Source of the DNA: Marchantia polymorpha subsp. ruderalis | Taxonomy: Eukaryota; Streptophyta; Marchantiopsida; Marchantiales; Marchantiaceae | Assembly (NCBI GenBank): GCA_037833965.1 | Contig: AP031355.1 | Location: 20,919,501 to 20,983,500, forward strand | Length of the DNA: 64,000 nucleotides | Direction of reading: 5' to 3' | Part shown: positions 22,001 to 58,700 of the stretch, one piece after another | Numbering within the stretch: the stretch's first letter is position 1 | How the letters are laid out: each line of letters begins with the position of its first letter | The notes under the pieces: generated by a model | The model's database searches: none | Told to the model about the DNA's origin: nothing | The model's input: only the letters and a program-made list of their open reading frames with translations | Program-made: the position numbers and the translations under genes

Positions 22001-24450
22001 CCTCTCTCGCGACGCACTTCCTATCTCCGTCGCAATCGTCGCCGTGTCTGCACTGTCAGCTGGCAACACCAGTCTGCGTGCCTTCTGCTTCGGCCGGCTG
22101 TATGGCTCGCACAGCGGCCGCGGTCAAATGGGAACAGAGAGTTCTTGATGCTGCTCCTCTTCGGCCTCTTCCCTCCATCGCCGCTTCCGCGGCACTCGCG
22201 CTGCAGGGGTGTGTCTCCCTTCGTCTCTCCGTCTTGATGGGGTAGAAGTCGGTGACTCCTCCGCATCAGTGTCGACCTCGTTCTCCCGCACATACTTCCC
22301 GGGATGGTCGATGGACAATGGCGGAAAATGTTCAAGCTCCGCCGCTGTCAAACAATTCCGCTGTCGATAAAAATTGATGAGGAAAGGAGAAAGATGGTTT
22401 AGCGTTCCCCCCTTCTCCTCAAACGCGTGCTGTCGCATCACTCTGTGCAGGATGCTCGCCCAGTGAATTGGAGTTCCCTCGATGACGCACTCCACAAAAG
22501 AGACCTGCCACAATGTGATGTAGCAGGCGCGGTGCGGCTGCAGTAATTGCATCAGCGCCGCGGACAAAGTCCGGCGAAATCGATCTTTGTAATCACGGGT
22601 CCTGTACCCATTCTTGGTAGACCTCCCGGTCTTGAACAGCTCCACAAATTGCGCTTCTTCTTGCTTGGTCACCTTGATGCTCTCGCTGTCGAAAAGGAGA
22701 TGCCCTGGCATGCCAGCACATCTTCCCAACGCCTGCGCCCAATCTTGGACTGTCCACCGGTCAACATGCGGACGCAATCCGCGCGAGGGTGGTCCCTGTG
22801 GCTCTAGCCACTCGCGCACCATATTCGCGCAGATGTAATTCCATCCCCATAGCAAGAAATCGAGCTTTCTTGCTATTAAGCGCTCTTCGAAAGCGCGCAG
22901 CCCGTTCTGCGGCAGGCGAAGTGGCACCATCCGCAATCTGCTCGGTCTCGTCATTGCGTTCCTGGGGTTCGCTCGCCCGCTCATTCTACTTCCGCACTGT
23001 CCGCGTTTCTTTCTCTCTCGGCAAACTCTAATCGCTCTCAATTCCAAATCACGCGCACTCACTTCTCCCTCAATCAACAAGAAATCTCCTGTGCGACGAC
23101 GACGAGAATGGTCCGCAGCCAGCAGATGGATGCGCGCAGCGCGCACAAGAGATTGGAATCGCGAATTCAAGAATGGGACGCTCTCCGCCGCCCGGTCGAA
23201 GGTCATGGTCGTCTCTTGGTCGTGAAGAACGTCTCACTTGATGGCCGCGCCGGCTGTACGCTGGAACGGTCTTCGCTCTCACGCGCGGCTTCACGCTCCG
23301 CCGTCGTCGATTAAACTCTCACGCTCGAATTGGCGGATTTGAACTCCGCGAGCGTGTCACCCTCCGGACATGGGGGCGTAGCGCCGAAGGCGAGTTTTCC
23401 GCCTTGCGCGGTACACTTGTTCGTACCGCCCCTCGGCCAATCTCCTTCTGCCTTGACGCGTGCGTCCGCATGTCGGACAAAAATTCAACTCCTGCCTGTG
23501 CGCAGGCAGGGGCCTCGGCGGATTCTCCGCCGGCGCGGAACTTGAACATCCTCCTGTGCACAGGCGTTCGCCTGTGCGCAGGCGAATTCCGTCCGCGGCG
23601 CTGCGCTGGCGCGGAAGGCGTTGACCGTGGTCAGCCGTCTCCGTCCAGTCTGTCCGTTCCTTGTCTCTCCGTCGGCGCTTCCGCCGCCGCAACTCCGTCC
23701 GTCCAAGAGCGCATCCACCCGTGCCGTCCGCATGGTCCGTACCGATTGGATTACTCTGGCGGTCTTCCGACGTACGCTGCGCTGCGCTGGCGCGGAAGGC
23801 ACCGTACACTTTCTACCTCACAAGGCGCATGTCTAGGGCCCAAGGCGGATCTCCCGCCGATGCCGAAGTGCCTGTGCACAGGCGAACGCCCGTGCGTAGG
23901 CGGACTTCGCGCCTTCCCTAACCCTACTTCGCCTGTGCACAGGCGAACGCCTTCGTCCGCGCATAGGACAAAACTTGAATCCCCCTTCCGCGCAGGCGGA
24001 ATTCGCGCCGGTGGCGAACTCCTTCCGCCGCAGGCGACCGCCTCCGTTTCTTCCAGTAGCGATAACTCCCTAAGTCCTCGTCCGTTCCAAGCGTTCTTGG
24101 GCTCGTTGGAATCAGCGCGTCGAGCTCTTTCCAACGAGATCCTAACTTGGTCAAGGCGCCCGAGGGTTACCTAATTACGAGGGTTTCCCTACAGCCGCGG
24201 ACGCAACCTCCGAAGGCGGGTTTTGCGCCTTGCGCCGTAGAGATCCTAACTGCGGAGCTCGCAGGGAGGGTGGTGCCTGACCTTACTACTGCACCCCAAA
24301 TCCCAGATTCTACAAGATCCCTCGAGAATCCCCGCGATCTTCCGGATTCACTCTGTTTTGATGTACCGAAGGCTATTTACAATGCTGCCAGGGTACAGTT
24401 TTCCAAAAATGTTTTAATTTCCTCAAAATTGCCAAAAGTGGGGTACCACA
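19047..24450 (-). mobile_element. Solo giant LTR inside the gypsy LTR, level 6
   Basis: It has TGTAATAACCC and GGGGTACCACA ends, target duplication CTAGA (19042-19046 and 24451-24455) and a length of 5404 bp. It is nearly identical to the solo LTR at 55762-61153. It sits in a gypsy element whose LTRs are themselves identical, so it is one of the youngest insertions here, yet it has already lost any internal region. Confidence 0.9.
20054..23206 (-). pseudogene. LTR-encoded ORF1, intact except one TGA
   Basis: This is a full-length ORF1 from 23206 (conserved inner ATG at 22954) to 20054. The only obvious lesion is the TGA at 22124-22126 (plus-strand TCA), where the near-identical sister copy at 55762 has CGA (Arg), just before the RPRPLCEPYS motif. 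The palindrome-encoded stretch has one more SPVHRR-type unit than the sister. Domains are as described for 56774-59908. Confidence 0.82.
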
Positions 24451-30032: not shown

Positions 30033-30042
30033 TTCCAACTAA

Positions 30043-31363: not shown

Positions 31364-31382
31364 GGTCCCGGCAACGGAACCA
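31364..31382 (-). promoter_or_regulatory. Primer binding site (tRNA-Asp-like)
   Basis: The minus strand reads TTTT then TGGTTCCGTTGCCGGGACC immediately after the 5' LTR. Plant Ty3/gypsy elements often use TGGCGCCGTTGCCGGGG, complementary to the 3' end of tRNA-Asp. Here GGCGCC is replaced by GGTTCC, so another or variant tRNA is possible. Confidence 0.7.
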
Positions 31383-31386
31383 AAAA

Positions 31387-39113: not shown

Positions 39114-40946
39114 GCTTTGCAGCTCAAACTTCAAAAGGGCAGGCAGAAGGTCAACAAAACTCAAAGTCTAATCAAGCAATACCTTCAGGCAAGTGCAAAT
39201 AGAGACAAACGCAAACTAGAAAAAGCTAGAATCCTAGGAGAGACGATTGACTTGACTCTTTCTCCCTAATTTGTTTGCTTGTGATGAATGAATGTTGTTT
39301 CAATATCCTAGTGAAATAAAATTATTTTGTCCAATTTCACATTTTGCAGATTTCCATGCACCGATTACAGTTTGAAAATTTACCATGAACTCACGTTACA
39401 TAAATGATTTTTTAAAGGATGACGGTCAATGTTGATGAGATGACGTTTCAAAATTTTGAACCTTGATTCTGCGTATTTTGATGTTCTTGTGATTCAACTT
39501 TTGATTTATTAATGAATGTACCTAGGTGCTACTCAAGTTATATTAAAAGTGTGATGGAAGAGACGTCTCTCTGTAAGGTCTTTCTTGTTGACGCTTGTTG
39601 GATTGCAAGAAGACGCGCCATCAGCTTGAATGTGACAGCTTGATATTCTTTAGTCAAAAGTATTTGGAATTCCAGGAGCTGGAGGCACTGAAATGTGCAG
39701 GAATGAGAAGGAACTTACAACAACAATTGGACCTTGCAAGGCTTGAGCTTACAATGTGTGATCTGGCTCGGGTATTGACCCTCAAAACTTTACTCGTTCA
39801 TTGCATATAGATTTACTTAAATAATGAAAAAAAAGTCCTCTTTGAAGTTGAGGAATTAATCTTATCCATTTTTTGACATGCACTCGACCTCTAGATTCAA
39901 TGACTGACCGGTAGAGTCTATTAAACTTTATCATAGAATTTTTGGGTACACTTGTCATGATCAGGTTCAAAGCATTGCACGTAAGTAACGATGACATTCA
40001 TTCATTGCATCTTTCAAAAAATACAAAATGTCCAATTTTTTCTTAAAATAAGTCACATATGCAGTAAAATCCCTCATATTATATTGTTAATACGTCAAAG
40101 TTGGAGATAATTTCATTCGATACTTGTCATGGTTAAGATTTTAAAACTTTACTGTTCAACTTTAGACTCTATTGTGTATATTCATCTCATATGCTTCAAT
40201 TCCGACAAAAGTAAGTAAATTTTTTTGTAAAGACAAAGGTGGGTATGAAATCACAATTGATGATATTTCAGATGGTCAAAAAGTTGTTAATATTTTGCCA
40301 ATAGGACCACAACTTATTATTTCAAAACTACTATATCTGTAATGCTATGACTGAAATCTTAAACTGGACTATGAAACCCATGAAGCTTATATAAAAGGCC
40401 AAAAATTATTCTATGTTCAAATCAAACGGCTGGCAAAATTCGACTGAAGGTGATGTTGGAGGTCCATTCCGTAGGCGAATATTCCAACACCGCTTTCTGA
40501 ATGTCCTCTCGTCTGCATCAGCACCGAGAGAGTTCGGACAGCTTCAAATTTAAACAACTTCAAATTTGAATTGAAGTGCTTTCGTTTGACACGTGCCAGA
40601 AGTTTGATGCCATTGAGATTTTACATCTGAATTTTCCATCGAATTTGAATCCGTGACTTTTTTTTTAGGTTTTAGATGGAAGAAATGTGGAAAGTGAAAA
40701 GGAAAAGAAATTAGTCGACGTTCAATCGTTAACCGGCGCGAGAGTCCAAGGTAATGTTTGATCGAGATTACACATCTTCCGATGATACAATAGGTATGAT
40801 TCGCACACCTCAGGATACTGTCCCTCTCCGTTGGTATTGAGCATTGTTCAATGTCTAGCATTGACCCACTTCTGCACGAATGTAGGCTGAATATTCTCGT
40901 GGTTTTATCTTTAGATAGTTGTGTGAGCTCTGTATTACAACGTTAC
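39114..40946. other. AT-rich host-like DNA with two possible exon fragments
   Basis: No repeat of the giant-LTR family is present. Immediately after the LTR end, 39114-39275(+) is an open frame of about 50 codons rich in Lys, Gln and Leu (LQLKLQKGRQKVNKTQSLIK) with a stop near 39269. A second open stretch, 39595-39774(+), reads SQKYLEFQELEALKCAGMRR and could end at a GT donor. I recognise neither. The remainder shows nothing. Confidence 0.35.
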
Positions 40947-42303
40947 TGTGGTAACACACTTTTTGTTTTTTTTGCAGAATTTAAACAATTTTAGAAAACT
41001 AGTACCAAAGCAGTGTTTGTAGCTAGAGAAGGGTACGCTAAATAGAATGGATTGATGAGATCGTCACGAGGGCACAAAGAATCACGTAGTCGGATGTACC
41101 AACGCCAACGTCTTCGGCGCCTTCGGCAAAAGCTCCTTTTTGAGGTATCTCTACTCACGCGCCTCTAGCGTATAAGGAAGCTACGCTTCCGGCGCAGACA
41201 CCTCAGGAGGAGGTTTTGCTAAAGACGTCAGGAGAAGGGCCCGGACCTCTAAAGGCATCCGACCATGAGTGCGCCTTCGGCGAAGCGCCGCTAGCGCGGA
41301 AAGGGAAAACCTTCATAACAATCGGGATACACGGTAGATCCAGTTGGTTGAAGTTGCCTTAGAAAGAGCGCGGGACGCTCGTTCTAACGAGTCCAAGAGC
41401 GTCGGAGATGGATCAGGAATGGAGAAGTTATGAGCGTCGGAAAACTCGTAGCCGGACATGCGCCGTTCGCGCTAGGGTTCACAGCCGGAAAGGATTCCCG
41501 TACGCCCTCGGCGATGCGCCTTCGGTGGAATCACGCGCTCATAGGAGGAAACCCACTCAGAGTCGGAAGCGCCTTTGGCGGCGGTCCATGGAAGGAAAGC
41601 GCCGGTCGGATGTACGTCTCCGACGTGGCGCTGACAGTCGGATGCGCTGGCATGAGTTGCGCTGGCGGATATGCGCCGGCAGCAACGGACGAGGCATAAA
41701 GGACAAAATAGGCGGTACGACTGCGCGCCGGCGTAATTCGATCCGACTGGATGTGCGCCTCCAGCAAGGCGCCGACGGATAATGAACGCACCAGCGGCGA
41801 CACGCCTCCGGAGAAAGGCGGGTTAGGAAAAGACAACAGGGTCGACGTATACCCTGCAGCGGACTCGAGTCCGGAAGGTGGCGGCGGCGGGAGAATTCAA
41901 CGTTTAAGCATGCGAATGCGCGCAATGCGGAGACGTGAATTCGCGCATGCAAAGGGCGAACCGTTAAGCCGTATAGCCGGCTGCGTACGTTGCAACCAGT
42001 AAGAACGTTGGACGTTCTTGAAATCGGAGAAGAAAAGACTGCACTCCAGTCTCATTCTCTCATTCTTGGCTTTGCGATTTCCAGTTCCAAGATTACGCGC
42101 AAGGGCGGAGCGACCTGCAGTGAGAGTAGAGAGTGCGGAGACGAGTTGCGCAAGGATCTTGGCGGACCTTGAAAGAATTGGGAGTAGCGATCTTGAACGA
42201 GCGCAGAGAGAGTGAGCAGTCAGTGCTTGAGTGGCCGACGCGCAGTGGCGATTGTGAGAGAGCGAGCGAAAGGGAGAACGTTTGTGTGTGTGCAGGCAAC
42301 GCA

Positions 42304-44859
42304 ATGTCGAAGGTTCCCCAGCTGCGAGTGTCTCCACTCAGGGTGCCGCAGATCGGTCTACGCGCATTTCAAGATGTGCTGTTGAGGCTGAAGCTCGATT
42401 TTCTCCTATGGGGGTGGAATTGGACATGTCCGGAGATGGTGCGCGAGTATCTGCAAGAGAGACACAAGCCTTCTCGCGGATTTCGCCCACACCCAGAGAG
42501 ATGGGACATTTGCAATTGGGCGCAGGTGTTGGGCAGGTGTGCCGGCGAGGAAGGGGATCTCCTCTTCGAGGCCGACAGCGTGAAAGTGTCCCAGGAGGAA
42601 GAAGTCTCTTACAATGAGCTCTTCAAGGTGGCTAGACATCCCAAGAACGGTTTCCGGACCCGGGATTACAAGGATCGATTGCGGAGAAATGTCGCGACGG
42701 CATTGCTGCAGATATTGCAGCCGACCAAGACCGCTTACATGCATGGTTGGCAGGTAGAGTTTGTGGAGCTAGTATTGTCAGGAGCTCCGGTGAATTGGGC
42801 ACGGCTCCTGTGGAAGGTGACGCGCCAACATGCGCAAGAAGAGAGGGGAGGAACCCTCAATCATCTATCGCCTTACTTAATCGTGTTTTACCGGGCGATG
42901 GGATGTTTGACGAATGCTGAGAAAACTCGGTTTCCGCAGCTGACCCGGACTTATTCAGGTAGATATTCGAGGGAGGCTGAAGTAGACACGGATCCGGACG
43001 AGGAACCTGCCAGTACGCCTCCGGCTCCGGCTCCAGCAAGAGCAGCAGAAGAACGTCGAAGTGAGCGCATTCCGCGAAAGCGGAAGTGGGATGAGAGACC
43101 TGAGGACAGGCAGCCGGAAGTACCAGCTGCGCCGACTCGTGGTCGGCCCACCCCCGAGCCTCACAGTCGACCAAAACAGAGGGCACGCAAAATGCCAACT
43201 GTTACTGAGGAGACCAGGCGAACTCCGACCCGGCGGAATCTCACACAGGAAGAGATAATCGCTCAGATCCTAGGGAAGACGGCAGAAACCTCTGCACAGA
43301 AGGCACCACGGCCTTCGGGAGGAGATGGACGGACTGACAGCCGGCCGGCTGCGAGTCGGATGACTGAAGGTCGACAAGCGGAAGGAAGGCCAACTGAACG
43401 GCGCGTTGAACCGGACAGCAGGCCGGAAGCAGAAGAGAGTTTGGCTGACGAGCCAACAATCCTCAGAGGGTCGTCTTCGGCGGAAGGCACTTCTGGAAGA
43501 ACGCCACCAACAAGCAGGCCAAGTGGAGTCAAGACGCGCAGGGTGTATCCGACTCCCTGTCGGACAACTGCTGGTCGGCCGACTGCGAGTCGGACAACAG
43601 AGAGTCAGTCGGATTCGCCGACTGCGAGACGGATGGGGCCAACGACGAGTGTGCGGACGCCTTCGGCGGACGCACCTTCAGCAAGGACACCTTCCGCGCA
43701 GATTGCGCCGGAAGGACAGGCAGCAGAAGCGGGCGGATCAAGAGTGACAAAAGTCACTGCGGCGTCGACCCCTTCACAAACCGAAGATCAAGCCGGAACA
43801 GGGGCTCAAGCAGTGGGATCTCCCACTGCCTTGGATATTTTAGCAGGCAGTGGAGTAGCAGTCGCAGCGGAAGCTGCTGCGCGCCACAGTTCCAGGGAGT
43901 CTCCAAGGGATTCGGTGGCGACTGAAATCCTCGAGACTGAGGATGAGACGAGCTCGGAAGAGCAAGAAGAGGATTTGGTGCAGAAAACGCCAACAGGGGT
44001 GCTGTGCGAACAGATAGTTCCACTCCTGCGATATCTGGATCGCAAGACATCCAAATACGCAAGTGCCTTAAAACCGCAGTCTTATGTGGAGACAATCAGG
44101 CGAAGGACGAGGAGCAAGGTGGCAAGGTGGGCCTCTAGGTGCCAAGTATATGTGGATAGGAACACCGCCCTCCGACAACACCTGGCGGTCACCCAGAAGC
44201 TATACCAAGCCTTGAAGCAGCAGAAGGAGGATGCGGCGACGAAGAGTCAGGCGGATGCCGAACTAATACGGGCAAAGATCGAGTCGGAATTGCAGGAGGA
44301 GCGGAGACAGAACAAAGTCCTAGCAGCCGAGCTTGCGCGCCAGACGCGCGCCTTAGAAGAAAGTCAAAGAGCCCGCAAGGAGGATGAGGAGTTGTTGCGC
44401 AACTTGCAAACCGAGTGCTCGGATTTGAGGGCACAACGTGCGGAATTAGAAACGCAGCTGGCAGAGGTGGAGAGCAGCTGCAGGGCGCGAGGAGAGTTGG
44501 CGGCACGGGTGACTCGTTGTCTAAAAGGATACACCCATTGGGAGGTGGTAGCTCAAGAGAGTATCACACTCAGGGAGTTCGAGCTTCGGGCGGCGGCACT
44601 GACGGAAGGTGACAGTCGGAGTCGGCGGCGAGTGGCGAGAAAATTAGAAACCTTCTTGTCGGGTGCGCGCGACACTATGGCGCACTTGCAGTCGGAAGTC
44701 ACCACAGCGCTCCGACGCCTGGGGTTACGCAGCCGGTCGGAAGACTGGCAAGGTAGAGATAGTAAGCGGAGCAGTCCGGCGCGCAGGAGGCGCAACACCG
44801 GATCTGCTGAGTGCAGTAGAGTAGTTTGGTTTCGCGCAGATGCTGCGAATGGTAGATAG
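42304..44859 (+). CDS. LTR-encoded ORF1 protein, intact (851 aa)
   Basis: The ATG at 42304 is the one conserved in all copies; the frame is open to 42133, but that extension is not conserved in this copy. The N-terminal domain (about 1-215) shows LDFLLWGWNWTCPEMVREYL, RDYKDRLRRNVATALLQIL and NHLSPYLIVFYRAMGCLT. A basic motif (PRKRKWDERPE) could be a nuclear signal. A Pro/Ser/Thr/Arg low-complexity middle follows, then SPTALDILAGS, an acidic patch, LCEQIVPLLRYLDRKTSKYA, a long coiled coil (about 600-760) and a basic C-terminus (SRSRRRVARKLETF). I do not recognise a catalytic motif. The general layout resembles accessory ORFs of plant Ty3/gypsy elements. It has fewer palindromic units than the other copies. 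Confidence 0.8.
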   Translation: MSKVPQLRVSPLRVPQIGLRAFQDVLLRLKLDFLLWGWNWTCPEMVREYLQERHKPSRGFRPHPERWDICNWAQVLGRCAGEEGDLLFEADSVKVSQEEEVSYNELFKVARHPKNGFRTRDYKDRLRRNVATALLQILQPTKTAYMHGWQVEFVELVLSGAPVNWARLLWKVTRQHAQEERGGTLNHLSPYLIVFYRAMGCLTNAEKTRFPQLTRTYSGRYSREAEVDTDPDEEPASTPPAPAPARAAEERRSERIPRKRKWDERPEDRQPEVPAAPTRGRPTPEPHSRPKQRARKMPTVTEETRRTPTRRNLTQEEIIAQILGKTAETSAQKAPRPSGGDGRTDSRPAASRMTEGRQAEGRPTERRVEPDSRPEAEESLADEPTILRGSSSAEGTSGRTPPTSRPSGVKTRRVYPTPCRTTAGRPTASRTTESQSDSPTARRMGPTTSVRTPSADAPSARTPSAQIAPEGQAAEAGGSRVTKVTAASTPSQTEDQAGTGAQAVGSPTALDILAGSGVAVAAEAAARHSSRESPRDSVATEILETEDETSSEEQEEDLVQKTPTGVLCEQIVPLLRYLDRKTSKYASALKPQSYVETIRRRTRSKVARWASRCQVYVDRNTALRQHLAVTQKLYQALKQQKEDAATKSQADAELIRAKIESELQEERRQNKVLAAELARQTRALEESQRARKEDEELLRNLQTECSDLRAQRAELETQLAEVESSCRARGELAARVTRCLKGYTHWEVVAQESITLREFELRAAALTEGDSRSRRRVARKLETFLSGARDTMAHLQSEVTTALRRLGLRSRSEDWQGRDSKRSSPARRRRNTGSAECSRVVWFRADAANGR

Positions 44860-44892
44860 GATAGTGTAGTGCTAGTTAGGATCTTTTGAGAG

Positions 44893-44899
44893 TATAAAG
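44893..44899 (+). promoter_or_regulatory. TATA-like box after ORF1 (conserved in most copies)
   Basis: TATAAAG lies 34 nt after the ORF1 stop. Equivalents: 37626-37632, 38169-38175, 52317-52323, and on the minus strand at 11442-11448, about 17771, 20011 and 56731. If it drives the genomic RNA, ORF1 belongs to U3. Confidence 0.55.
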
Positions 44900-44904
44900 T
44901 AGAT

Positions 44905-44921
44905 CAAGGCGTTTTGCCTTG
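44905..44921 (+). other. Conserved hairpin CAAGGC-GTTTT-GCCTTG
   Basis: A six-base-pair dyad starts 12 nt after the start of the TATA-like box. It is kept in the other copies that retain the region. In the two solo LTRs at 19047 and 55762 the second pair changes from A-T to C-G on both sides (CCAGGC with GCCTGG). Confidence 0.6.
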
Positions 44922-45812
44922 GGACTCTTCCAGTTTCGGAAGTGCAGATCAGGAACTCACTTTCTTGGCGTGTTTGTGCATTTTGGTCCTGGCACCACGT
45001 AGAGAAGCTGCAGCATAGCGAAGTTACCGTATGTTGTAGTTGAAGGCCTTTGGCTGAATGTTCAGAGCTAGCACCCGGTTAGAGACTTGAGCAGTGCGGA
45101 TCTGCACCTGCGGGTGATTTCTGATGCTCAGAGCCGGCTGCGAGTTAGATACTTGAACAGTTCCCCCTTACTCCTTCGAGTGACATATCCTGATTGTACT
45201 CCTACGGGAAGTTTCCCCTGAATGCCAATGTGAAGTTTCATTACTTCGTGTAAACCTTGGTTTGTAATTCAGGTTGTGTGTGTGTTACTGGATCGTGTTT
45301 TCAGTAAGTTCTCAGTCGGGTCTGCACTCCGTGCGTTTTGTGTGATAGTCGAGGGTGACGTCCACGGCGTACGTAGAGGCTTCGTTCCGAAGTGAGAAGT
45401 CCAGTCCGGGTACCCCCGCTAGTTCCTGGCGGAAGGGCAGTAAAAGCCGGAGTGGGAGGCACTTCCTGCAGAACCTCTGAGTGAACTTACGAGACACTTT
45501 CCTCCTGAAATCCGAAGCGGAGGTCCTGACCGACCTCCGAGTTGTGCTTTTTGCCAGTTTCAGGTGTGTGTGTTTGTGTGTGTTGAGTGACCAAGCTGTA
45601 CCGTGCATCCTCCGAGCATCCTCCGAGTTGAGATCCTCCTCCGAGTCGAGCCTCCGAGTCGAGCACTGCAGTATTTCTGGGAGTGACAGTCGCCTAGAAT
45701 TCAAACTCTACAAAAGTCTGTTAAACGTGACACTTTTACTCTGTGTGTTGCCTCTGTCCCTGTGGGTTCGATCTTTTTACCACCATACTGCAGTTTTAGC
45801 CTTTGGTGGGTC

Positions 45813-47667
45813 ATCTTCAGAAGAAGAAAGACGGAAGAAGAAACGCAGTGCGATCAAGAAGAAGGATCGAGGTAAGGGAATCCCAGTGAAGACTCAAGGG
45901 GACATCGCAGCCAAGGTAGACAACCTGGTGAAGAATTTTGCGGACCTGAAAGTTCATGTAGTGGGAGGCCAAGACCGACGTAAATCACCTGCGAGACAAC
46001 GAGCGAATCTCTGGTGTACTACGTGCGGACAGGTGGGACATGCCAACACGGAGTGCATGTCCGCGCGGCCATCTTACCCAGTGAATGCGGTCGAATGGGC
46101 ACCACAGTGGGAGAACCCCATGTATTATGCTGAGCCACCTATGTATTATGCTGAGCAGGTTGAGGACACCGCCTACTCGGTACAGACAGCTCCAGCTACA
46201 ACTCCGAACCCACCGGTGCATATACCGCGCTATGTTCCGAGGGAAATGGCAGGTACACTCCCACCAAGACGCATGGCACCTCCAGGCAATCACAACCGAC
46301 CTCGACCACAATTCGATGGTTGCTACAACTGCGGAGACATGGGGCATTACGCGCCAAGCTGTCCCCACCCGAGGAAGCCAATGGGGTATGCACCGTTGTG
46401 CAGCAATTGCAAGAAGTCTGGACATACAGTAGCCGAATGTGATCAGCCCCAACTCCCTAGGCCAGCAGTGCATTTCGTATCAACGCCTGGCAAGGAAGAG
46501 GTGCAGGTCAACCAGGTAGAACTGAGTCTGGACCCAGTTGAAGAAAACGAAGTATGGCCAGAGGAAGAAGTAATGTGCGGTCGGGTAGAAACCCGAAGTT
46601 CGAAGAAGAGAGGAGAAGGCCACGAGGACACTCGCCGCCTCGAGCGTAGGGAAGAGAGGAGGAAGTCTAAAGAAGTTAGAGAAGGCCAAAGGAGAAGGCC
46701 GGGTACACCTCCGGCTATGAGAAACACCCAGCCGGAGCAGAACTCAGAAAAGGCGGACAGGTATTCGGAAGAGTCCCGGACTCGAGATTACCTTCCGGAC
46801 ATCAAAGATGAGGTGAGTCACCTCATCAAGGAAGCACTGGGCGCCGGAATGACATCCGACGACCGGAAGGCGGTTAGGCCCCCTACACCCCTTCCGACCG
46901 CGAGTACAGGGAAACTTCCGGCTGTGACTTCCAACACTTCCTATGACATAGTGAAAGACATGGGGAGCCAGAGGGCAAATATTTCCTTCCACCAGTTGTT
47001 GGAAGACAATAAGACGTACAGGAGGATGCTGATGCTTTCGTTGCACCGACCACGCAAACCCCGAAAAGAGAAACTTCCGGCTGTGTACAGAGTGGAAGGA
47101 GGAGACCTGGGACCTCCAGAGATCGAGGTAGAGATCGGAGGCTGCGTCATACAGAAGGTACCTGTGGACTCCGGCTCGGGCGTGAATATCATGACCGAGG
47201 AGACAGCGAACTCCTTGGGGTTCCAGACCTTCGAGCCTACATCCCGAGTATTGCGACTGGCCGATCAAACACGCAGAATGCCACTAGGAATGTTGAGCAA
47301 TGTGAGAACCAACATTGGAGGAGTGGACTTTCAACTGTCCTACATAATACTGCAACCTCTGATGAAGAAAGGTTATGATGTGCTGCTTGGCAGACCATGG
47401 CTATACGATGCCAAAGCAAGGTGTGACTGGAGTAGGAAGAGATTACAGTTCCGTAGCCCTGCGGACCCTCCGACTGTCATTACCGTACCGTGGACCAAGG
47501 TACCCCATGAGGGCGAAACACCTTCCACCACCTCCGGTTACACAACCGGAGGGGAGACCAGCTCATCATGCACTTCCGAGACCGAAACGTCGGAGGAATT
47601 TGTGGGCTACGTCACTTGCTGCTCCATTGAGGAGGAAGGAGACGAGGTGTATCCGGATGACGAATAG
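45813..47667 (+). CDS. 5'-truncated gag with three zinc knuckles, plus aspartic protease
   Basis: The internal region starts abruptly after the LTR with a Lys/Glu-rich stretch (the frame reads in from LTR sequence without its own ATG). Three CX2CX4HX4C knuckles follow: CTTCGQVGHANTEC (46015-46056), CYNCGDMGHYAPSC (46321-46362) and CSNCKKSGHTVAEC (46399-46440). The retroviral-type protease is at about 47140-47410 (VPVDSGSGVNIM with Asp at 47167, and YDVLLGRPWL). The capsid domain normally preceding the knuckles is missing. The frame ends at TAG 47665-47667 and continues in the same frame into pol. Confidence 0.82.
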
Positions 47668-47673
47668 CAACTA
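47665..47673 (+). promoter_or_regulatory. Putative leaky stop (UAG CAA CUA) between protease and RT
   Basis: TAG is followed by CAACTA, matching the CARYYA context that promotes readthrough of UAG in tobamovirus-type genes. Thirty-three sense codons then lead in the same frame into the RT region, with no ATG until about 47860. The site sits at a natural domain boundary. Confidence 0.65.
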
Positions 47674-50508
47674 GCAGCCGGACTGGGCAGAAGCGAGATC
47701 AGTCACACAGAGGGGATTGTTGACCCGAGTGATTGCTGCGAACTGCAACTCAGTCCAGGTAAAGGCTTGAAGGTGTCAAGCCAGGTACAAGGAGAAGAGT
47801 TGAACAGGGTACAGGCGTTTCTTCGCCAGTATGAGGATGTCTTCGCATGGAAGATTGAAGACATGAAAGGCATACCTGCAAGGTATGGAGAGCACAGGAT
47901 CGACTTGTTGGACGAGGCAGTTCCGGTTCGCCAACGCCAATACAGGCTCAACCCAAAATATTCATTATTGGTGAAGGACGAAATCGATAAGTACCTGAGC
48001 GCAGGAATCATCTACCCGGTACTCAGTAGCGAGTGGGTGTCGCCTATCGTGATCGTGCCCAAGAAACTGACGGGTAAGATCCGGGTGTGTCAGGACTTCC
48101 GGAAGCTGAACGCAGCAACGAGGAAGGACCATCACCCTCTTCCTTTCACGGACTCTATTTTGGACCAGGTCGCAGGGCATGAATGCTACAGTTTCCTAGA
48201 CGGATTCTCCGGCTACAACCAGGTGTCCATCAGGGAACAGGACAAGGACAAAACAACCTTCACGACCGACTGGGGAACCTATGCTTATCACAAGATGCCG
48301 TTCGGTCTGTGCAACGCGCCAGCGACGTTCCAGCGGATGATGACAAACATCTTCCAAGAGCACCTGAGGAAGTTCCTAGAAATTTTCATCGACGACTTTT
48401 GCGTCTTCGGTAAGAGGTCGGAGCACCTTGACCATCTTCGGCAAACGTTCGACAGATGTAGGGAGAGCAGCTTGTCCTTACACCCTGAGAAATGTTTTTT
48501 CTTCATGACCAGCGGAATCCTGCTAGGGCACCGAGTTTCGTCCGATGGCATTGCAGTGTATGTAGAGAAGGTGAAGATTATTCTCGAACTGCAGCCGCCA
48601 ACGAATCTGCGTGAGTTGAGGGCCTTCCTTGGCCATGTAGGTTATTACAGAAGGTTCATAAATATGTACGCCATCTTGGCAGCCGCTCTGACGAAGCTGC
48701 TTAAGAAGGATGAACCCTATGTGTGGGGCAAAGAGCAACAGCTGGCCTTTGAAACGCTCAAAGCCAAACTGACGACTGCTCCGGTTCTGAGAAGTCCGGA
48801 TTGGAACAGACCTTTCCATGTCTATGTAGACACGTCGGCGTTTGCAATCGGAGTGGTTCTCAGTCAGAAGGACGACAATAAGAAAGACTACCCGATTTAC
48901 TTCGCGAGTCGTCAGTTGTCAGCAGCAGAGAAGAAGTACACGACAACTGAGAGGGAGGCGTTGGGAATGGTGTACTCCTGCAAGAAGTTCCGACATTATT
49001 TGATCTGCTACGAGTTCGTGTTTCATGTAGATCATTACGCCTTACAGCACCTGGTGAAGAAGGCGGATCTGTCCGGACGAATTGCCAGGTGGGTACTACT
49101 ACTGCAGGAATTCACCTACACTATACAGACACGGAAAGGCGTTCACCATGAGAACGCGGACTACCTCTCCCGACTATGGACCGAACCCATAGAGGAGGAA
49201 GTAGTGGATGATTTTCCCGACGAACAACTTTTTCAGTTGTCCGCCAGCCATGAGTCCAGGTACGCGGACTTATACAGGTTCCTGCTCACACTCCAATGTC
49301 CGGAAGGATTGGATGCAGAGCAGCGCACAGTCTTCGTTCATAAAGCGGGACCTTACCAGCTTCAACAAGGGGTCTTGTTCAAGAAAATGGCAGACGAGAG
49401 GTTGTGCAGATGTCTAGAGGAGTCCGAAGTCCCGCGACTTGTCAAAGCCATGCACACAGAAGACGCTGGTGGTCACTACGCCACCAGAAATACAGTGACC
49501 AAAATTGTGAATGCAGGATACTGGTGGCCCACGATGTTCAAAGATGTACACGACTACGTTCGCAAATGCGACAGCTGCCAGAGGACGGGAAGGCCGACTC
49601 CGACCACGAGATGGCCTCTTACACCAATCATGCCATTGGCACCATTTGAAAAATGGGGGATCGACTTCGTGGGACCAATACAACCTGTCACTAAAAGCAC
49701 GCGCAGGCGCTACATATTGGTAGCAACAGACCATGCGACCAAGATGGTGGAGGCAGAGGCCACAAGGCACGACGACGCAGCCGCAGTAGCACGGTTCCTA
49801 TTCGAATCAATCATCACACGCTACGGGTGCCCCCTAGAAATAGTCAGTGACAGAGGGACGCACTTTCTGAATCAGGTGATAGAGAGTTTGACGCGGCACT
49901 TCCAGATTAAGCATCGAAAGACTACTCCATACAACCCCAAGGCAAATGGTCTGACAGAGAAGTCCAATGGATTACTCTGTAAGATACTCCTCAAGGTGAC
50001 TGTACACCATGCTCATGACTGGGACACCAAGCTACCGGCCGCCTTATGGGCATATAGAACGGCAGAAAAAGTCACCACCAGGCAAACACCTTACTTCCTA
50101 GTTTATGGGCAGCATCCGATCTTACCCATCGAATTCGAGATACCTACCAAGAGGACCTTAGATCAGAGAAGGCTAGACGCGGAAGAAAGTCAGGCATATC
50201 GACTGCAAGAGGTAATGGCACTGGAGGAAAGACGTCAAGATGCCGAAGATCGGACAAAGCAATTACAACTCAGGCGGAAGGAGAAGTACGATCGAAGGCT
50301 CAAACCAGTACTGCTGGAGAAGGGCGACTTGGCTCTGCTATACGATAGCAGACATGCTAGATTTCCAGGCAAGCTCCACTTGAGGTGGATGGGACCTTAC
50401 AAGGTGATAGAAGTTTTTCCAAATGGATCCATCCAACTCGCAGAACTGACGGGAGAATGGTTAGGCACCCGCGTGAACGGATGGCGTCTGAAGAAATACC
50501 ACGTGTAA
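47668..50508 (+). CDS. Ty3/gypsy pol: reverse transcriptase, RNase H, integrase
   Basis: This is one uninterrupted frame. Reverse transcriptase: SGIIYPVLSSEWVSPIVIV, then the catalytic FIDDFCVFG with Asp-Asp at 48391-48396. RNase H: HVYVDTSAFAIGVVLS and TTEREALGMVYSCKKF. Integrase: HHCC finger (KCDSCQRTG near 49570), core with Asp (VATDHATK), Asp (SDRGTHF) and Glu (LTEKSNG), and a C-terminal GPY/F module (RWMGPYKVIEVFPNGSI). There is no chromodomain. The protein lacks its own good start codon and is probably made by readthrough from gag-protease. It ends 25 nt before the polypurine tract. Confidence 0.92.
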   Translation, partial: QLAAGLGRSEISHTEGIVDPSDCCELQLSPGKGLKVSSQVQGEELNRVQAFLRQYEDVFAWKIEDMKGIPARYGEHRIDLLDEAVPVRQRQYRLNPKYSLLVKDEIDKYLSAGIIYPVLSSEWVSPIVIVPKKLTGKIRVCQDFRKLNAATRKDHHPLPFTDSILDQVAGHECYSFLDGFSGYNQVSIREQDKDKTTFTTDWGTYAYHKMPFGLCNAPATFQRMMTNIFQEHLRKFLEIFIDDFCVFGKRSEHLDHLRQTFDRCRESSLSLHPEKCFFFMTSGILLGHRVSSDGIAVYVEKVKIILELQPPTNLRELRAFLGHVGYYRRFINMYAILAAALTKLLKKDEPYVWGKEQQLAFETLKAKLTTAPVLRSPDWNRPFHVYVDTSAFAIGVVLSQKDDNKKDYPIYFASRQLSAAEKKYTTTEREALGMVYSCKKFRHYLICYEFVFHVDHYALQHLVKKADLSGRIARWVLLLQEFTYTIQTRKGVHHENADYLSRLWTEPIEEEVVDDFPDEQLFQLSASHESRYADLYRFLLTLQCPEGLDAEQRTVFVHKAGPYQLQQGVLFKKMADERLCRCLEESEVPRLVKAMHTEDAGGHYATRNTVTKIVNAGYWWPTMFKDVHDYVRKCDSCQRTGRPTPTTRWPLTPIMPLAPFEKWGIDFVGPIQPVTKSTRRRYILVATDHATKMVEAEATRHDDAAAVARFLFESIITRYGCPLEIVSDRGTHFLNQVIESLTRHFQIKHRKTTPYNPKANGLTEKSNGLLCKILLKVTVHHAHDWDTKLPAALWAYRTAEKVTTRQTPYFLVYGQHPILPIEFEIPTKRTLDQRRLDAEESQAYRLQEVMALEERRQDAEDRTKQLQLRRKEKYDRRLKPVLLEKGDLALLYDSRHARFPGKLHLRWMGPYKVIEVFPNGSIQLAELTGEWLGTRVNGWRLKKYHV

Positions 50509-50532
50509 ATGTTCGCGTGGGCGCTCACAATT

Positions 50533-50543
50533 GAGGAGGGGGG
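50533..50543 (+). promoter_or_regulatory. Polypurine tract
   Basis: GAGGAGGGGGG followed by CA lies directly before the 3' LTR start at 50546. This is the expected primer for plus-strand DNA synthesis. Confidence 0.88.
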
Positions 50544-50545
50544 CA

Positions 50546-53242
50546 TGTGGTAACACACTTTTTGTTTTTTTTTGCAGAATTTAAACAATTTTAGAAAACT
50601 AGTACCAAAGCAGTGTTTGTAGCTAGAGAAGGGTACGCTAAATAGAGTGGATTGATGAGATCGTCACGAGGGCACAAAGAATCACGTAGTCGGATGTACC
50701 AACGCCAACGTCTTCGGCGCCTTCGGCAAAAGCTCCTTTTTGAGGTATCTCTACTCACGCGCCTCTAGCGTATAAGGAAGCTACGCTTCCGGCGCAGACA
50801 CCTCAGGAGGAGGTTTTGCTAAAGACGTCAGGAGAAGGGCCCGGACCTCTAAAGGCATCCGACCATGAGTGCGCCTTCGGCGAAGCGCCGCTAGCGCGGA
50901 AAGGGAAAACCTTCATAACAATCGGGATACACGGTAGATCCAGTTGGTTGAAGTTGCCTTAGAAAGAGCGCGGGACGCTCGTTCTAACGAGTCCAAGAGC
51001 GTCGGAGATGGATCAGGAATGGAGAAGTTATGAGCGTCGGAAAACTCGTAGCCTGACATGCGCCGTTCGCGCTAGGGTTCACAGCCGGAAAGGATTCCCG
51101 TACGCCCTCGGCGATGCGCCTTCGGTGGAATCACGCGCTCATAGGAGGAAACCCACTCAGAGTCGGAAGCGCCTTTGGCGGCGGTCCATGGAAGGAAAGC
51201 GCCGGTCGGATGTACGTCTCCGACGTGGCGCTGACAGTCGGATGCGCTGGCATGAGTTGCGCTGGCGGATATGCGCCGGCAGCAACGGACGAGGCATAAA
51301 GGACAAAATAGGCGGTACGACTGCGCGCCGGCGTAATTCGATCCGACTGGATGTGCGCCTCCAGCAAGGCGCCGACGGATAATGAACGCACCAGCGGCGA
51401 CACGCCTCCGGAGAAAGGCGGGTTAGGAAAAGACAACAGGGTCGACGTATACCCTGCAGCGGACTCGAGTCCGGAAGGTGGCGGCGGCGGGAGAATTCAA
51501 CGTTTAAGCATGCGAATGCGCGCAATGCGGAGACGTGAATTCGCGCATGCAAAGGGCGAACCGTTAAGCCGTATAGCCGGCTGCGTACGTTGCAACCAGT
51601 AAGAACGTTGGACGTTCTTGAAATCGGAGAAGAAAAGACTGCACTCCAGTCTCATTCTCTCATTCTTGGCTTTGCGATTTCCAGTTCCAAGATTACGCGC
51701 AAGGGCGGAGCGACCTGCAGTGAGAGTAGAGAGTGCGGAGACGAGTTGCGCAAGGATCTTGGCGGACCTTGAAAGAATTGGGAGTAGCGATCTTGAACGA
51801 GCGCAGAGAGAGTGAGCAGTCAGTGCTTGAGTGGCCGACGCGCAGTGGCGATTGTGAGAGAGCGAGCGAAAGGGAGAACGTTTGTGTGTGTGCAGGCAAC
51901 GCAATGTCGAAGGTTCCCCAGCTGCGAGTGTCTCCACTCAGGGTGCCGCAGATCGGTCTACGCGCATTTCAAGATGTGCTGTTGAGGCTGAAGCTCGATT
52001 TTCTCCTATGGGGGTGGAATTGGACATGTCCGGAGATGGTGCGCGAGTATCTGCAAGAGAGACACAAGCCTTCTCGCGGATTTCGCCCACACCCAGAGAG
52101 ATGGGACATTTGCAATTGGGCGCAGGTGTTGGGCAGGTGTGCCTGGGGTTACGCAGCCGGTCGGAAGACTGGCAAGGTAGAGATAGTAAGCGGAGCAGTC
52201 CGGCGCGCAGGAGGCGCAACACCGGATCTGCTGAGTGCAGTAGAGTAGTTTGGTTTCGCGCAGATGCTGCGAATGGTAGATAGGATAGTGTAGTGCTAGT
52301 TAGGATCTTTTGAGAGTATAAAGTAGATCAAGGCGTTTTGCCTTGGGACTCTTCCAGTTTCGGAAGTGCAGATCAGGAACTCACTTTCTTGGCGTGTTTG
52401 TGCATTTTGGTCCTGGCACCACGTAGAGAAGCTGCAGCATAGCGAAGTTACCGTATGTTGTAGTTGAAGGCCTTTGGCTGAATGTTCAGAGCTAGCACCC
52501 GGTTAGAGACTTGAGCAGTGCGGATCTGCACCTGCGGGTGATTTCTGATGCTCAGAGCCGGCTGCGAGTTAGATACTTGAACAGTTCCCCCTTACTCCTT
52601 CGAGTGACATATCCTGATTGTACTCCTACGGGAAGTTTCCCCTGAATGCCAATGTGAAGTTTCATTACTTCGTGTAAACCTTGGTTTGTAATTCAGGTTG
52701 TGTGTGTGTTACTGGATCGTGTTTTCAGTAAGTTCTCAGTCGGGTCTGCACTCCGTGCGTTTTGTGTGATAGTCGAGGGTGACGTCCACGGCGTACGTAG
52801 AGGCTTCGTTCCGAAGTGAGAAGTCCAGTCCGGGTACCCCCGCTAGTTCCTGGCGGAAGGGCAGTAAAAGCCGGAGTGGGAGGCACTTCCTGCAGAACCT
52901 CTGAGTGAACTTACGAGACACTTTCCTCCTGAAATCCGAAGCGGAGGTCCTGACCGACCTCCGAGTTGTGCTTTTTGCCAGTTTCAGGTGTGTGTGTTTG
53001 TGTGTGTTGAGTGACCAAGCTGTACCGTGCATCCTCCGAGCATCCTCCGAGTTGAGATCCTCCTCCGAGTCGAGCCTCCGAGTCGAGCACTGCAGTATTT
53101 CTGGGAGTGACAGTCGCCTAGAATTCAAACTCTACAAAAGTCTGTTAAACGTGACACTTTTACTCTGTGTGTTGCCTCTGTCCCTGTGGATTCGATCTTT
53201 TTACCACCATACTGCAGTTTTAGCCTTTGGTGGGTTATTACA
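50546..53242 (+). repeat. 3' giant LTR with ORF1 mostly deleted (2.70 kb)
   Basis: It matches the 5' LTR base for base except for four small differences and a missing block equivalent to 42544-44719. The breakpoint shares GCC on both sides (52141-52143). The TATA-like box is at 52317-52323, and the LTR end is complete. Confidence 0.9.
51904..52248 (+). pseudogene. ORF1 remnant in the 3' LTR
   Basis: The first 80 codons of ORF1 (to VLGRCA) are joined out of frame to its last 40 codons. The protein stops at 52248. This is the copy that would lie downstream of pol in the genomic RNA. Confidence 0.85.
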
Positions 53243-53247
53243 GTTAC

Positions 53248-55761: not shown

Positions 55762-58700
55762 TGTAATAACCCACTAAAGGCTAAAACTGCAATATAGTGG
55801 TAGAAAGGTCGAACCCACAGGGACAGAGGAACACACAGGGTATAAAGTGTCACGTTTTAACAGACTATTGAGGAGTTTGAATTCTCAGGCAACTGTCACT
55901 CCCAGAAATACTGCAAGTGTCCACTCGGAACGCACTCGGAGGTCGCACAGTGCAGCGTAACACACACACACACACACACCTGAAACTACAGAAACACAAC
56001 CCAGAGATCCGTTAGGACCTCTACTTCAAGATTTCAGGGGGAAAGTCTCTCAAGAGCACACTCGGCAAAGCTGCGGGCAGTGACTTCCAACTCCGGCTTT
56101 TACAACACTTCCACTAGCTTGCTGCTAGTGTAGGAAACCCGGTTTGGACTGCCTACTTCGGATCGAAGTCACTCCTACGCGGTGAACAACACTCTCAACT
56201 CACAAAACGCGCAGAGAACACAGGTCCGCACTGAAGGACTCACTGTGAAACATTCCAGTAACACAACAACAGTCTATTGAAGAGTTTGAATTCTCAGGCA
56301 CTTGTCATTCCCAGAAATACTACAGGGGTTACCCTCAAGGCACCTGCTGCAGCGTAACCTGAATTTACAACCAAGGCTTACACGAAGTAGCAAAACTTCA
56401 CTTTGGCATTCAGGGGAAAAATCCCAAGGAGTACAATCAGAAAGGAACACTCGAAGGTGTAGGGGCGAAACTGTTCAAGTATCTAACTAGTCACTGGCTC
56501 TGAGCATCGGCAGTCACCCGCAGGTGCAGATCCGAACTACTCAAGTCTCTAACCAATGGACTAGCTTTGAACATTCGGCCGAAGGCCTTCAGCTACAAAA
56601 TGCGGAACGCTAAGTTGTAACTCCTCGTGCGTGGTGACAGAACTCAAGGACACAAACACGCAAAGGAAATGGGTTCCTGAACTATACTTCTGAGTTTGGG
56701 AAAGAACCCCAGGCAAAACGCCTGGAACTATTTTATACCTTCTAAGTCCTACCTAACACTACACTGCACTACGCTACACGCCTGCACGGAACCACGCTAC
56801 ACTACACTCCGCGGAACCTGTACTACGTCTCCTGCGCGGCCGACTGCCGCGCACTAGCTCCCTACCCTGCCACTCTTCCGCTCGACTACGCAGTCCCAAC
56901 CGCTGCAACGCCGCGGACACCTCCCCCTCGAGGGCGGACATGGTATCCTGTGCCTTCGACAGAAAGGCCTCGAGCTTCTTCGCTACCTTCCGCCGACTCC
57001 TACTGTCGCCTGACAACAACCCGGCTGCGCGCAATTCAAACTCCCGCAGTGTGAGTTTCTCCTGCGCCTTCACTTCCCAGTGGGCGTAGCCCTTGAGCCA
57101 GTGGGCGACTCGCCTCGCCGTCTCCACCTTCGTGCGATCCGCCTCCTTCCTGCGATCCTCTTCAATGGTCACTAATTGCGATTCGGCTTCAGCACGTTGC
57201 GCCCTCAATTCGCCACACTCTGACTGTAAACTGCGGATTAATTCTTCATCCGCCTGCCGTGCGAGCTGACATTGTTCCAACAACCGCGTCTGTCGCACGA
57301 GCTCCTCTGACAAAATCCGATTCTCGGCCTGCTCAGAGTTGAGTGCTTCCTTGACCTTCACCTGCTCCTTGGTGAGCTCGCCCAGTTTCTCATCCTTCAT
57401 CTTCTCGGAGTGCTTGTAGAATTTCTGATTAAGCTTGTACTGTCCCCACAAGCACTCATGCTTCTCCTTCAAGTCCCTCAACTCCTGGTCCACTCTAGCT
57501 AATAGCTTGCTGGTGTGGACTTTAGTGCGAGTCCGCCTGCGCACTAACTCGATGTAAGATCCCGGCTGGAGTGGGTCGGCGTATTTATCGACCTTGCGAT
57601 CCAAGTACCGCAGCAACGGAATCACCTGCTCAGAGAGCGCCGCCGCCGGCGCTCCAACAATTTCCTCCTCCTCCTCCTCGGTGTCTTCTGCTCCTGACAT
57701 TTCTTCCGTGGAGCCTCCGTCCTCATCATCCGAGTGGAGAATTTCAGTCGCCATTGATTGTGTCGGCGACTGCCCCGAGTGGGGCTGCACGTCCTCGACG
57801 TGTGCTGCCTGCGAAGGCACGGCTGCAGCCTCGCTGCTCGTCGCCAAAATGTCTAAGGCGGAAGGCGAATGTATCCGAGCGGCATCCCTGTCGCTCGCTG
57901 GTTGATTGCCCACCGCATTCTCTCTGTCGCCGTCGTCCGTCGCCGAAGGCGATCGAGCGGAGGGTGGCTGCGCGGGGTTGGATTGCGCATCGCGCATCGA
58001 GATGTCGTCCCGCGGACAGTCACTCCGCTCCTCCGTCTGCTGCTCCCTTGATCGGTCCGTGGGGGCTGTGTCCGGCCCGTGCGCAGGCGCATGTGCCGGC
58101 GCCTTGTCCGCCGCAGGCGTAGCGCCGCGGACATCTATCGCCGAAGGCGACATGGCCGGGGGCCGCACGCCCGATGTTCCTTGGCCTATAGGCCCTACCG
58201 CCGAAGGCGCATCTATCGGCGTACTTCCCGCCGATGGTGCGGCCTCCGCACGCTCTCTGCTCGTATCCCCTCGGCTCGAAGGCCCTGGCGCCGAAGGCGC
58301 GAATTGCGGCGCGTGGTGCGCCGGTGGGTCTGGCCCCGAGGGCCGGTGTCTCGTAGGCGGTTCTTCCGCCGGCTCCTTCCCCTTCCTACGTTGGAACGGG
58401 GTTGATTCTTGCCTGTGCACAGGCGGCACGTGTGGAGGTGTTCTGTGCACAGGTGACCTGTGCACAGGCGACCTGTGCACAGGCGCACTGCTCCTTCCCA
58501 CGCGTAAGCGTAGATCCACGTCCACTTGTGTTCGCCGATCCGCGGAGGCTCGTCCGTCCGCGGAGGTTCGCCTGTGCGCAAACGGAACATCTGTCCGCAT
58601 CGCACGTGGTAACTCCGGAGGCCCTTGGCCCGTAGGCGGCCTCTCTCCCGACGAGGTTGCAGCGTGGCCCGTCGCTCCTGCGGTCGTCCGCGCTTCCTCT

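What the first reader, a model, noticed from the sequence alone, without database searches (positions are those of the whole stretch)
40947..53242. A Ty3/gypsy family whose LTR encodes a large protein, placed in U3
Seen: the direct repeats of the 40947-53242 element hold a complete 851-codon frame in the 5' copy. The same frame recurs, intact or broken, in most other LTR copies of the window. A TATA-like box lies after its stop in most copies. Inference: if genomic RNA starts there, ORF1 is in U3. The 5' copy is then outside the RNA, and the RNA ends with gag-pol-ORF1, the position of env or of accessory genes such as the mouse mammary tumour virus LTR gene. An LTR of 4.5-5.4 kb that is mostly protein-coding is unusual for plants.
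Basis: partly seen in the sequence, partly recalled or inferred. Interest (0 to 1): 0.88.

Follow-up and report, generated by a model that had tools for sequence, protein, structure and literature searches.

The report
Liverwort retrotransposon with gene inside LTRs
A very common jumping gene of the liverwort Marchantia carries a large, evolutionarily preserved protein gene inside its repeated ends, a layout best known from a mouse retrovirus, so even the leftover single ends it scatters through the genome can carry a whole gene.

Summary
Its 5' LTR has the complete 851-codon ORF1; its 3' LTR has lost about 2.17 kb of it, and its internal region has lost the primer site and gag capsid.

The genome matches Marchantia polymorpha Tak-2 v7.1. 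A uniform internal region (5781-5802 bp at 49 of 66 junctions examined) has no room beside gag-pro-pol. Three insertions with matching 5-bp target duplications carry stop-free ORF1 in every LTR (7 of 7). Eleven of 30 ORF1 loci are solo LTRs with identical duplications.

ORF1 is under purifying selection: its 231-codon N-terminal domain has omega 0.015-0.21 between window copies, and variants found in two or more of 25 insertions are 23 synonymous to 1 non-synonymous.

TATAAA lies 32-33 bases after the ORF1 stop in 24 of 24 LTRs with both ends located; no TATA[AT]A occurs in the first 1.35 kb of 29 readable LTR starts. This favours ORF1 in U3, as in MMTV sag; no RNA start was mapped. The N-domain has no Pfam match and ORF1 has no membrane-like stretch; a nuclear accessory protein is likelier than an envelope. 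New variant of a known kind.

The parts
40942..40946 (.). Target-site duplication GTTAC, left copy
40947..45811 (+). 5' LTR of the element (its last bases and the junction to the PBS are missing)
   Evidence: LTRs of the same subfamily with both ends located are 4845-4880 bp
42304..44859 (+). ORF1, 851 codons, complete, inside the 5' LTR: N-terminal domain 1-231, low-complexity linker, charged C-terminal part nearly free of proline
44893..44898 (+). TATAAA box after the ORF1 stop; proposed promoter of genomic RNA and so proposed end of U3
45812..47667 (+). Truncated gag (capsid part missing, zinc knuckles kept) and protease, ending in TAG CAA CTA
   Evidence: Pfam zf-CCHC 4e-9; Asp_protease_2 9.2e-5, just under its cut-off; in L070 gag capsid (1.9e-13) and protease pass their cut-offs
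47668..50508 (+). pol: reverse transcriptase, one RNase H region, integrase; in frame with gag-pro after the amber stop
50533..50545 (+). Polypurine tract GAGGAGGGGGGCA directly before the 3' LTR
   Evidence: 1253 such PPT-LTR junctions in the genome at up to 2 mismatches
50546..53238 (+). 3' LTR with an internal deletion of about 2.17 kb that removes most of ORF1
51904..52248 (+). Remnant of ORF1 in the 3' LTR (114 codons to the first stop)
53239..53243 (.). Target-site duplication GTTAC, right copy
55762..61153 (-). Solo LTR of a related subfamily (5.39 kb; copy B), target duplication CGGAC on both sides
56774..59656 (-). Unbroken ORF1 of that solo LTR, 960 codons from the conserved ATG
19047..24450 (-). 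Solo LTR (copy C), target duplication TCTAG; ORF1 stops after 276 codons
12270..16932 (+). Solo LTR (copy E), target duplication CGGTC; ORF1 stops after 416 codons
35123..35815 (-). ORF1 N-domain of another LTR copy (D) whose LTR starts at 37165
8235..8954 (+). ORF1 N-domain of a further subfamily (copy H, LTR start 6880), one stop inside

Best explanation
This is a high-copy, recently active Ty3/gypsy family of Marchantia polymorpha whose LTRs (4.87-5.4 kb) contain a conserved accessory gene, ORF1, in the U3 part. Genomic RNA most likely starts at the TATA box just after ORF1, so it reads R-U5-PBS-gag-pro-pol-PPT-U3(ORF1)-R. Only the 3' copy of ORF1 is in that RNA, and reverse transcription copies it into both LTRs. 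ORF1 protein is probably made from a separate mRNA, either spliced to the acceptor-like AG just before its ATG or started at a TATA-less promoter in the first 1.36 kb of the LTR. That second possibility would let solo LTRs express it as single-gene loci. From its composition it is likely a nuclear, self-associating protein with an accessory role in the element's life cycle. Shown: the geometry, the conserved ORF, purifying selection, the conserved TATA position. Inferred: RNA start, mode of expression, nuclear location, function.
For: Insertions L049/L052 (TSD GCTCT), L061/L062 (TSD TCCTC) and a three-LTR tandem L054-L055-L056 (TSD AAGGA) have ORF1 without stops in every LTR, 7 of 7. Their LTRs differ at 28/4859, 2/4869 and 0-2/4867 positions. 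Of 66 PPT-LTR junctions typed from the listing, 49 have an LTR-PBS junction 5781-5802 bp upstream, 4 have one at 12.2-17.9 kb and 13 have none in the typed list. Whole counts are 1253 PPT-LTR and 1165 LTR-PBS junctions, reversed controls 0. In the copies read, the gag frame opens 84 bases after the LTR (L061) and pol ends 37 bases before the 3' LTR (L013, L028; same in the window), leaving no room for ORF1 inside. Selection. TATAAA in 24/24 LTRs with both ends located (one is the window's own, truncated at its right end), 32-33 bases after the stop. No TATA[AT]A in the first 1.35 kb of 29 LTR starts out of 30 loci (one, L036, a short derivative), nor before ORF1 in four window copies. Highest Kyte-Doolittle mean over 19 residues 1.35; basic clusters PRKRKW and RPKQRARK.
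Against: No RNA evidence of any kind. About 0.36 TATA[AT]A would be expected by base composition in each LTR start, so their absence is weak evidence, and TATA-less promoters exist. Window copies E and F lack the box. The linker is under weaker constraint (omega 0.27-0.50). The 30 genome loci were picked by protein score, which lowers apparent dN. The structure predictions failed (mean pLDDT 37.5 and 41.8), so there is no fold-based clue to function. The heptad scan printed nothing above its threshold.
Confidence: 0.6

Rival explanations
1. Genomic RNA starts near the left end of the LTR, so ORF1 is the first gene of a long RNA (ORF1-gag-pol) and lies in a very long R, functionally like the 5' extra ORF of Ogre elements.
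For: The first ~50 bp of the LTR are well conserved across subfamilies, and a TATA-less promoter there is not excluded.
Against: The conserved TATA box is after ORF1. An R of several kb would place the poly(A) site of the 5' LTR before gag, to be skipped every time (inference).
Confidence: 0.2
2. ORF1 is kept by selection on the host: solo LTRs act as host genes or as anti-element (restriction) genes, as suggested for endogenous MMTV sag loci.
For: Solo LTRs with unbroken ORF1 are frequent in the sample (9 of 11 solo LTRs, a sample picked by protein score). ORF1-like 'hypothetical proteins' are annotated in M. polymorpha.
Against: In the N-domain, variants confined to one insertion are 25 synonymous to 17 non-synonymous, while those in two or more insertions are 23 to 1: constraint acts mostly along the propagating lineages, not on each locus. 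Copies nearest to an annotated relative (P0007) are mostly broken (9 of the first 82 hits without stops).
Confidence: 0.1
3. The ORF1-bearing 'LTR' is itself a separate mobile unit, and the gag-pol element only shares its ends.
For: Many 5-kb units stand alone with their own target duplications.
Against: Units have LTR ends (TG...CA) and 5-bp duplications, and such ends abut PBS and PPT at more than a thousand junctions each, at a constant internal length in 49 of 66 examined. Solo LTRs by LTR-LTR recombination explain the rest (established for LTR elements), and long LTRs favour it.
Confidence: 0.05
4. ORF1 is an envelope-like membrane protein.
For: Its position at the 3' end of the RNA, if U3 is right.
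Against: No membrane-helix-like stretch; basic clusters; no Pfam match of the N-domain.
Confidence: 0.03

Closest known systems
Mouse mammary tumour virus LTR gene (sag)
   Same: A whole sense-strand ORF inside an exceptionally long LTR; most endogenous copies keep it intact (passages of PMC3026287).
   Different: Host, protein, LTR length (1.3 versus 4.9-5.4 kb) and function are unrelated; MMTV has env; sag mRNAs are known to be spliced, here this is unproven.
Ogre elements (Ty3/gypsy, OTA|Tat)
   Same: Plant Ty3/gypsy; large extra ORF; very long LTRs occur among non-chromoviruses (passages of PMC6317226).
   Different: In Ogre the extra ORF is outside the LTR, upstream of gag (position recalled), with the plant mobile domain in 57% of elements; here it is in the LTR and the N-domain has no Pfam match. 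No second RNase H match in pol.
Retand elements (antisense TRP28 ORF)
   Same: Conserved extra ORF near the 3' end, proposed regulatory role (abstract of PMC11963269).
   Different: There antisense, between pol and the 3' LTR; here sense and inside the LTR.
Athila elements (ORF-1 family, PF03078)
   Same: Non-chromovirus plant Ty3/gypsy, some with extra ORFs; a tRNA-Asp-type primer site is recalled for this group.
   Different: ORF1 gave no PF03078 match; described extra ORFs are up- or downstream of gag-pol. RT phylogeny not done.

Membership tests
LTR retrotransposon | Direct LTRs with TG...CA ends, 5-bp target duplication, PBS and PPT next to the LTRs | tested here: met
   the PBS lies 22 bases inside
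Ty3/gypsy | Domain order protease-RT-RNase H-integrase | tested here: met
Ty3/gypsy | RT phylogeny | not tested
   no reference RT set at hand
Chromovirus | Chromodomain after integrase | tested here: not met
   no chromodomain match up to E 0.1
OTA|Tat (incl. Ogre, Retand) | Second, archaeal-type RNase H | tested here: not met
   one RNase H region only; a divergent aRH could be missed
Ogre | Extra ORF between 5' LTR and gag, often with plant mobile domain (PF10536) | tested here: not met
   gag frame opens 84 bases after the LTR in L061; no PF10536 match
Retand | Antisense Transposase_28 ORF between pol and 3' LTR | tested here: not met
   pol ends 37 bases before the 3' LTR in the copies read (and window)
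Athila | PF03078 extra ORF / Athila RT clade | tested here: inconclusive
   no PF03078 match; it marks only 16% of Athila; RT clade not tested
MMTV sag-like layout (works like, not member) | Complete ORF inside both LTRs | tested here: met
   7 of 7 LTRs of three complete insertions
MMTV sag-like layout (works like, not member) | ORF upstream of the genomic promoter (U3) | tested here: inconclusive
   TATA box after ORF1 only; no RNA start mapped
MMTV sag-like layout (works like, not member) | Spliced mRNA with acceptor just upstream of the ORF | tested here: inconclusive
   an AG lies just before the ATG in the aligned copies; no RNA data

The most novel reading that the evidence does not exclude
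A plant Ty3/gypsy lineage has independently evolved a U3-encoded accessory gene, a new protein family seen so far only in Marchantia. Because the gene is inside the LTR with its own regulatory DNA, each solo LTR is a stand-alone helper gene, so LTR-LTR recombination, which normally kills an element, leaves behind functional copies that act in trans.
Probability: 0.4. Interest if true: 0.88.

Novelty: new variant of a known kind. Interest (0 to 1): 0.72.

Why it matters
In what I read, extra ORFs of plant LTR retrotransposons are described 5' or 3' of gag-pol (review PMC7264820, survey PMC6317226). A large selected gene inside the LTR changes what a solo LTR is: a gene, not only a promoter. It also offers a model plant, with a near-complete genome and easy genetics, in which the role of an LTR-borne accessory protein can be tested directly. 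The family is abundant (1165 LTR-PBS junctions), and dozens of hypothetical Marchantia proteins in public databases match ORF1, so annotation is affected too.

Tried and rejected
Homology of ORF1 to gag was rejected: hhalign of the N-domain profile against the gag translation gave probability 0.2%. Homology to a plant transposon-protein family (PF20167), suspected from a recalled motif resemblance, was not confirmed: no match in the genome, but the controls did not ring either, so that search is weak. Pfam: no match of the N-domain; elsewhere in ORF1 or its relatives only low-complexity or coiled-coil-type hits under their cut-offs, the best being Extensin_1 (1.9e-4, P0001) and CENP-K (0.0018, P0002). 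PDB by sequence: none at E<=1. NCBIfam: only weak hits, 0.074 or worse. Two structure predictions of the N-domain were too poor to search with, so no fold search was run. CTTCGG repeats in the left part of the LTR (4 against 0.26-0.32 in single-base shuffles) were not pursued. The dN/dS was discarded because L060 was out of register; repeat it with 29 of 30 loci. 'Self-associating' rests on composition and those weak hits.
Full report
Where it is. The window lies in a 241,466,482-base, 9-contig genome. Public relatives of ORF1 that carry a name are all Marchantia polymorpha subsp. ruderalis. Contig C1 is 5,591,195 bases. That is exactly the chrU length implied by Table 1 of the MarpolBase paper (PMC13078153, passages only: 248,042,680 minus 242,451,485). 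The total is within 18 kb of Tak-2 v7.1 (241,484,302), a difference I cannot explain. I therefore take the genome to be M. polymorpha Tak-2 and C1 to be chrU.

The exemplar. Element 40947-53238 is flanked by GTTAC on both sides. Its 5' LTR has ORF1 complete (851 codons, 42304-44859). Its 3' LTR lacks 42544-44716, and ORF1 there stops after 114 codons. At the junction of the 5' LTR with the internal region, the LTR's last bases, the PBS and the gag capsid are missing; elsewhere they are present (gag capsid in L070 at 1.9e-13). So the exemplar is defective, while the family is not.

The family. An exact-length internal region recurs. Of these, 49 have an LTR-PBS junction 5781-5802 bp upstream on the same strand, 4 have one at 12.2-17.9 kb, and 13 have none in the typed list. 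Genome-wide there are 1253 PPT-LTR junctions at up to 2 mismatches and 1165 exact LTR-PBS junctions, with 0 in the reversed controls. In the copies read, the gag frame opens 84 bases after the LTR (L061) and pol ends 37 bases before the 3' LTR (L013 and L028; 50508 against 50546 in the window). There is no room for another gene of that size inside.

ORF1 is in both LTRs. The 30 best ORF1 loci were classified by their flanks: 11 solo LTRs with identical 5-bp flanks, 6 5' LTRs, 4 3' LTRs, 1 inner LTR of a tandem, the window's own copy (labelled by the script as genomic on both sides because of a false end match), 1 with both flanks genomic but no matching duplication (L051), and 6 whose ends were not both found. 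Three insertions are complete on both sides with the same target duplication: L049/L052, L061/L062 and the three-LTR tandem L054-L055-L056. ORF1 has no stop in any of these seven LTRs. In the same typed list, 13 stretches run from a PPT-LTR junction to the next LTR-PBS junction: two are 4868 bp (the length of ORF1-bearing subfamily A), four are 5360-5385 bp (that of subfamily B, 5392 bp in the window), and seven are 4230-8974 bp and were not interpreted. LTRs of one insertion differ at 2 of 4869, 28 of 4859 and 0-2 of 4867 positions, so the family moved recently.

Selection. Between window copies, which were not chosen by protein score, the N-domain (231 codons) shows 18 synonymous to 1 non-synonymous change (B/E, omega 0.015), omega 0.10 (B/D) and 0.14-0.21 (A against the others; dS there is near saturation); B and C are identical there. 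By region against copy B: N-domain 0.01-0.16, linker 0.27-0.50, C-terminal part 0.09-0.26, except that the nearly identical B/C pair gives 0.88 on 8 changes. Among 29 genome copies (L060 dropped as out of register) pN/pS is 0.071, 0.353 and 0.263 for the three parts. With LTRs of one insertion merged (25 insertions), N-domain variants found in two or more insertions are 23 synonymous to 1 non-synonymous, and those in one insertion only 25 to 17; for the linker 16:12 against 48:53, for the C-terminal part 24:14 against 36:28. These copies were picked by protein score, which biases against amino-acid changes. The contrast between shared and private changes is still what is expected if copies decay after insertion while the propagating lineage is constrained, most of all in the N-domain. 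Of 53 scored hits for the window's ORF1, 43 have no stop; for the annotated relative P0007, 9 of the first 82 hits have none. The first-look numbers (13,297 and 10,216) are candidates, not copies.

Where the RNA starts. TATAAA is present in 24 of 24 LTRs with both ends located, one of them the window's own, 32-33 bases after the ORF1 stop; in the other six ORF1 loci it is at 33 or, in the out-of-register L060, 48. It is also after the stop in window copies B (36 bases on), C and G, and absent from E and gapped in F. In the first 1.35 kb of the LTR no TATA[AT]A was found in 29 LTR starts out of 30 loci (L037 was not read; L036 is a short derivative), nor before ORF1 in four window copies. By base composition about 0.36 is expected per LTR start and the copies are related, so the absence alone is weak. 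The fixed presence after ORF1 is the stronger fact. This favours ORF1 in U3. No transcript was examined.

What ORF1 may do. It has a conserved N-terminal domain, a Pro/Ser/Thr-rich basic linker with clusters like PRKRKW and RPKQRARK, an acidic patch and a charged C-terminal part nearly free of proline. There is no membrane-like stretch (highest 19-residue mean 1.35). The N-domain has no Pfam match at E<=10; other parts give only weak low-complexity or coiled-coil-type hits under their cut-offs; PDB by sequence gives none. Transposon proteins are often missing from proteomes, so this is not proof of restriction. It is unrelated to gag by profile comparison. A nuclear, self-associating accessory protein is my inference.

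How expressed. By analogy to MMTV, whose sag mRNAs use an acceptor just upstream of the LTR ORF (PMC3026287, passages), I note an AG just before the conserved AACGCAATG in the aligned copies. This is suggestive only. Alternatively a TATA-less promoter lies in the left 1.36 kb of the LTR, which would make solo LTRs genes.

Against the literature. Seen: parts 1-2 of 3 of the text of PMC7264820, the outline and abstract of PMC11963269, and passages of PMC6317226, PMC9985172, PMC5408684, PMC3026287 and PMC13078153. They place extra ORFs of plant LTR retrotransposons up- or downstream of gag-pol and mention LTRs up to about 5 kb; none of what I saw describes a conserved ORF inside a plant LTR. The paper searches (listings of 1 to 25 papers) showed no title or abstract start on an LTR-encoded ORF of Marchantia; only open-licence PMC papers are held, and a Marchantia genome paper cited there (PMC7209395) was not held. 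The motif similarity to another plant family and the tRNA-Asp nature of the primer site are from memory.

Verdict. Observation confirmed, reading partly supported. The geometry and selection are solid; U3 is likely; function is open.

Noticed in passing
genome; listed sites: Between the LTR end and the tRNA-Asp-like PBS lies a conserved 22-base spacer (TAAGRAGCCGACAACTTCTTTT with few variants) that can form a small hairpin (AAGAAG/CTTCTT). That seems long for such a spacer and poses the question how the U5 end is trimmed before integration.
   Followed up: partly
47665-47673; same in L070: gag-pro ends in TAG CAA CTA and pol follows in frame with no other stop; this fits the leaky UAG-CARYYA read-through context (recalled), so pol may be made by stop read-through.
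   Followed up: partly
G000 C2:31345306-31384684 (-), C7:486795-510658 (-), C5:20408083-20431964 (+): Tandem arrays LTR-internal-LTR-internal-LTR at constant spacing (about 10.66 or 11.18 kb); in the C7 case with one target duplication around the whole array.
   Followed up: partly
24451-32244 (-): Nested Ty3/gypsy element of another family with two 792-bp stretches 100% identical; it looks very recent, and the solo LTR at 19047-24450 appears to have inserted into it.
   Followed up: no
L036/L037 (C2:23113583, 23114593); C3:17734520-17740921: Short repeat units (about 1.0 and 3.19 kb) that begin with the family's PPT-LTR junction; the stretch read for the 1.0-kb unit shows no LTR end and no PBS. 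Possibly non-autonomous derivatives or array expansions.
   Followed up: partly
C1 (chrU), about 2.40-3.28 Mb: Places repeat with the same offsets (406,369 and about 342,466 bases), consistent with the triplicated U-chromosome region mentioned in PMC13078153.
   Followed up: no
P0001-P0007, P0009 and others: Dozens of M. polymorpha 'hypothetical proteins' in public databases match ORF1; P0062 joins an integrase-like and an ORF1-like stretch.
   Followed up: partly
40947-42303 and other LTR starts: Repeated CCTTCGG/CGCCTTCGGCG motifs, able to form UUCG-tetraloop hairpins in RNA, in the left part of the LTR.
   Followed up: no
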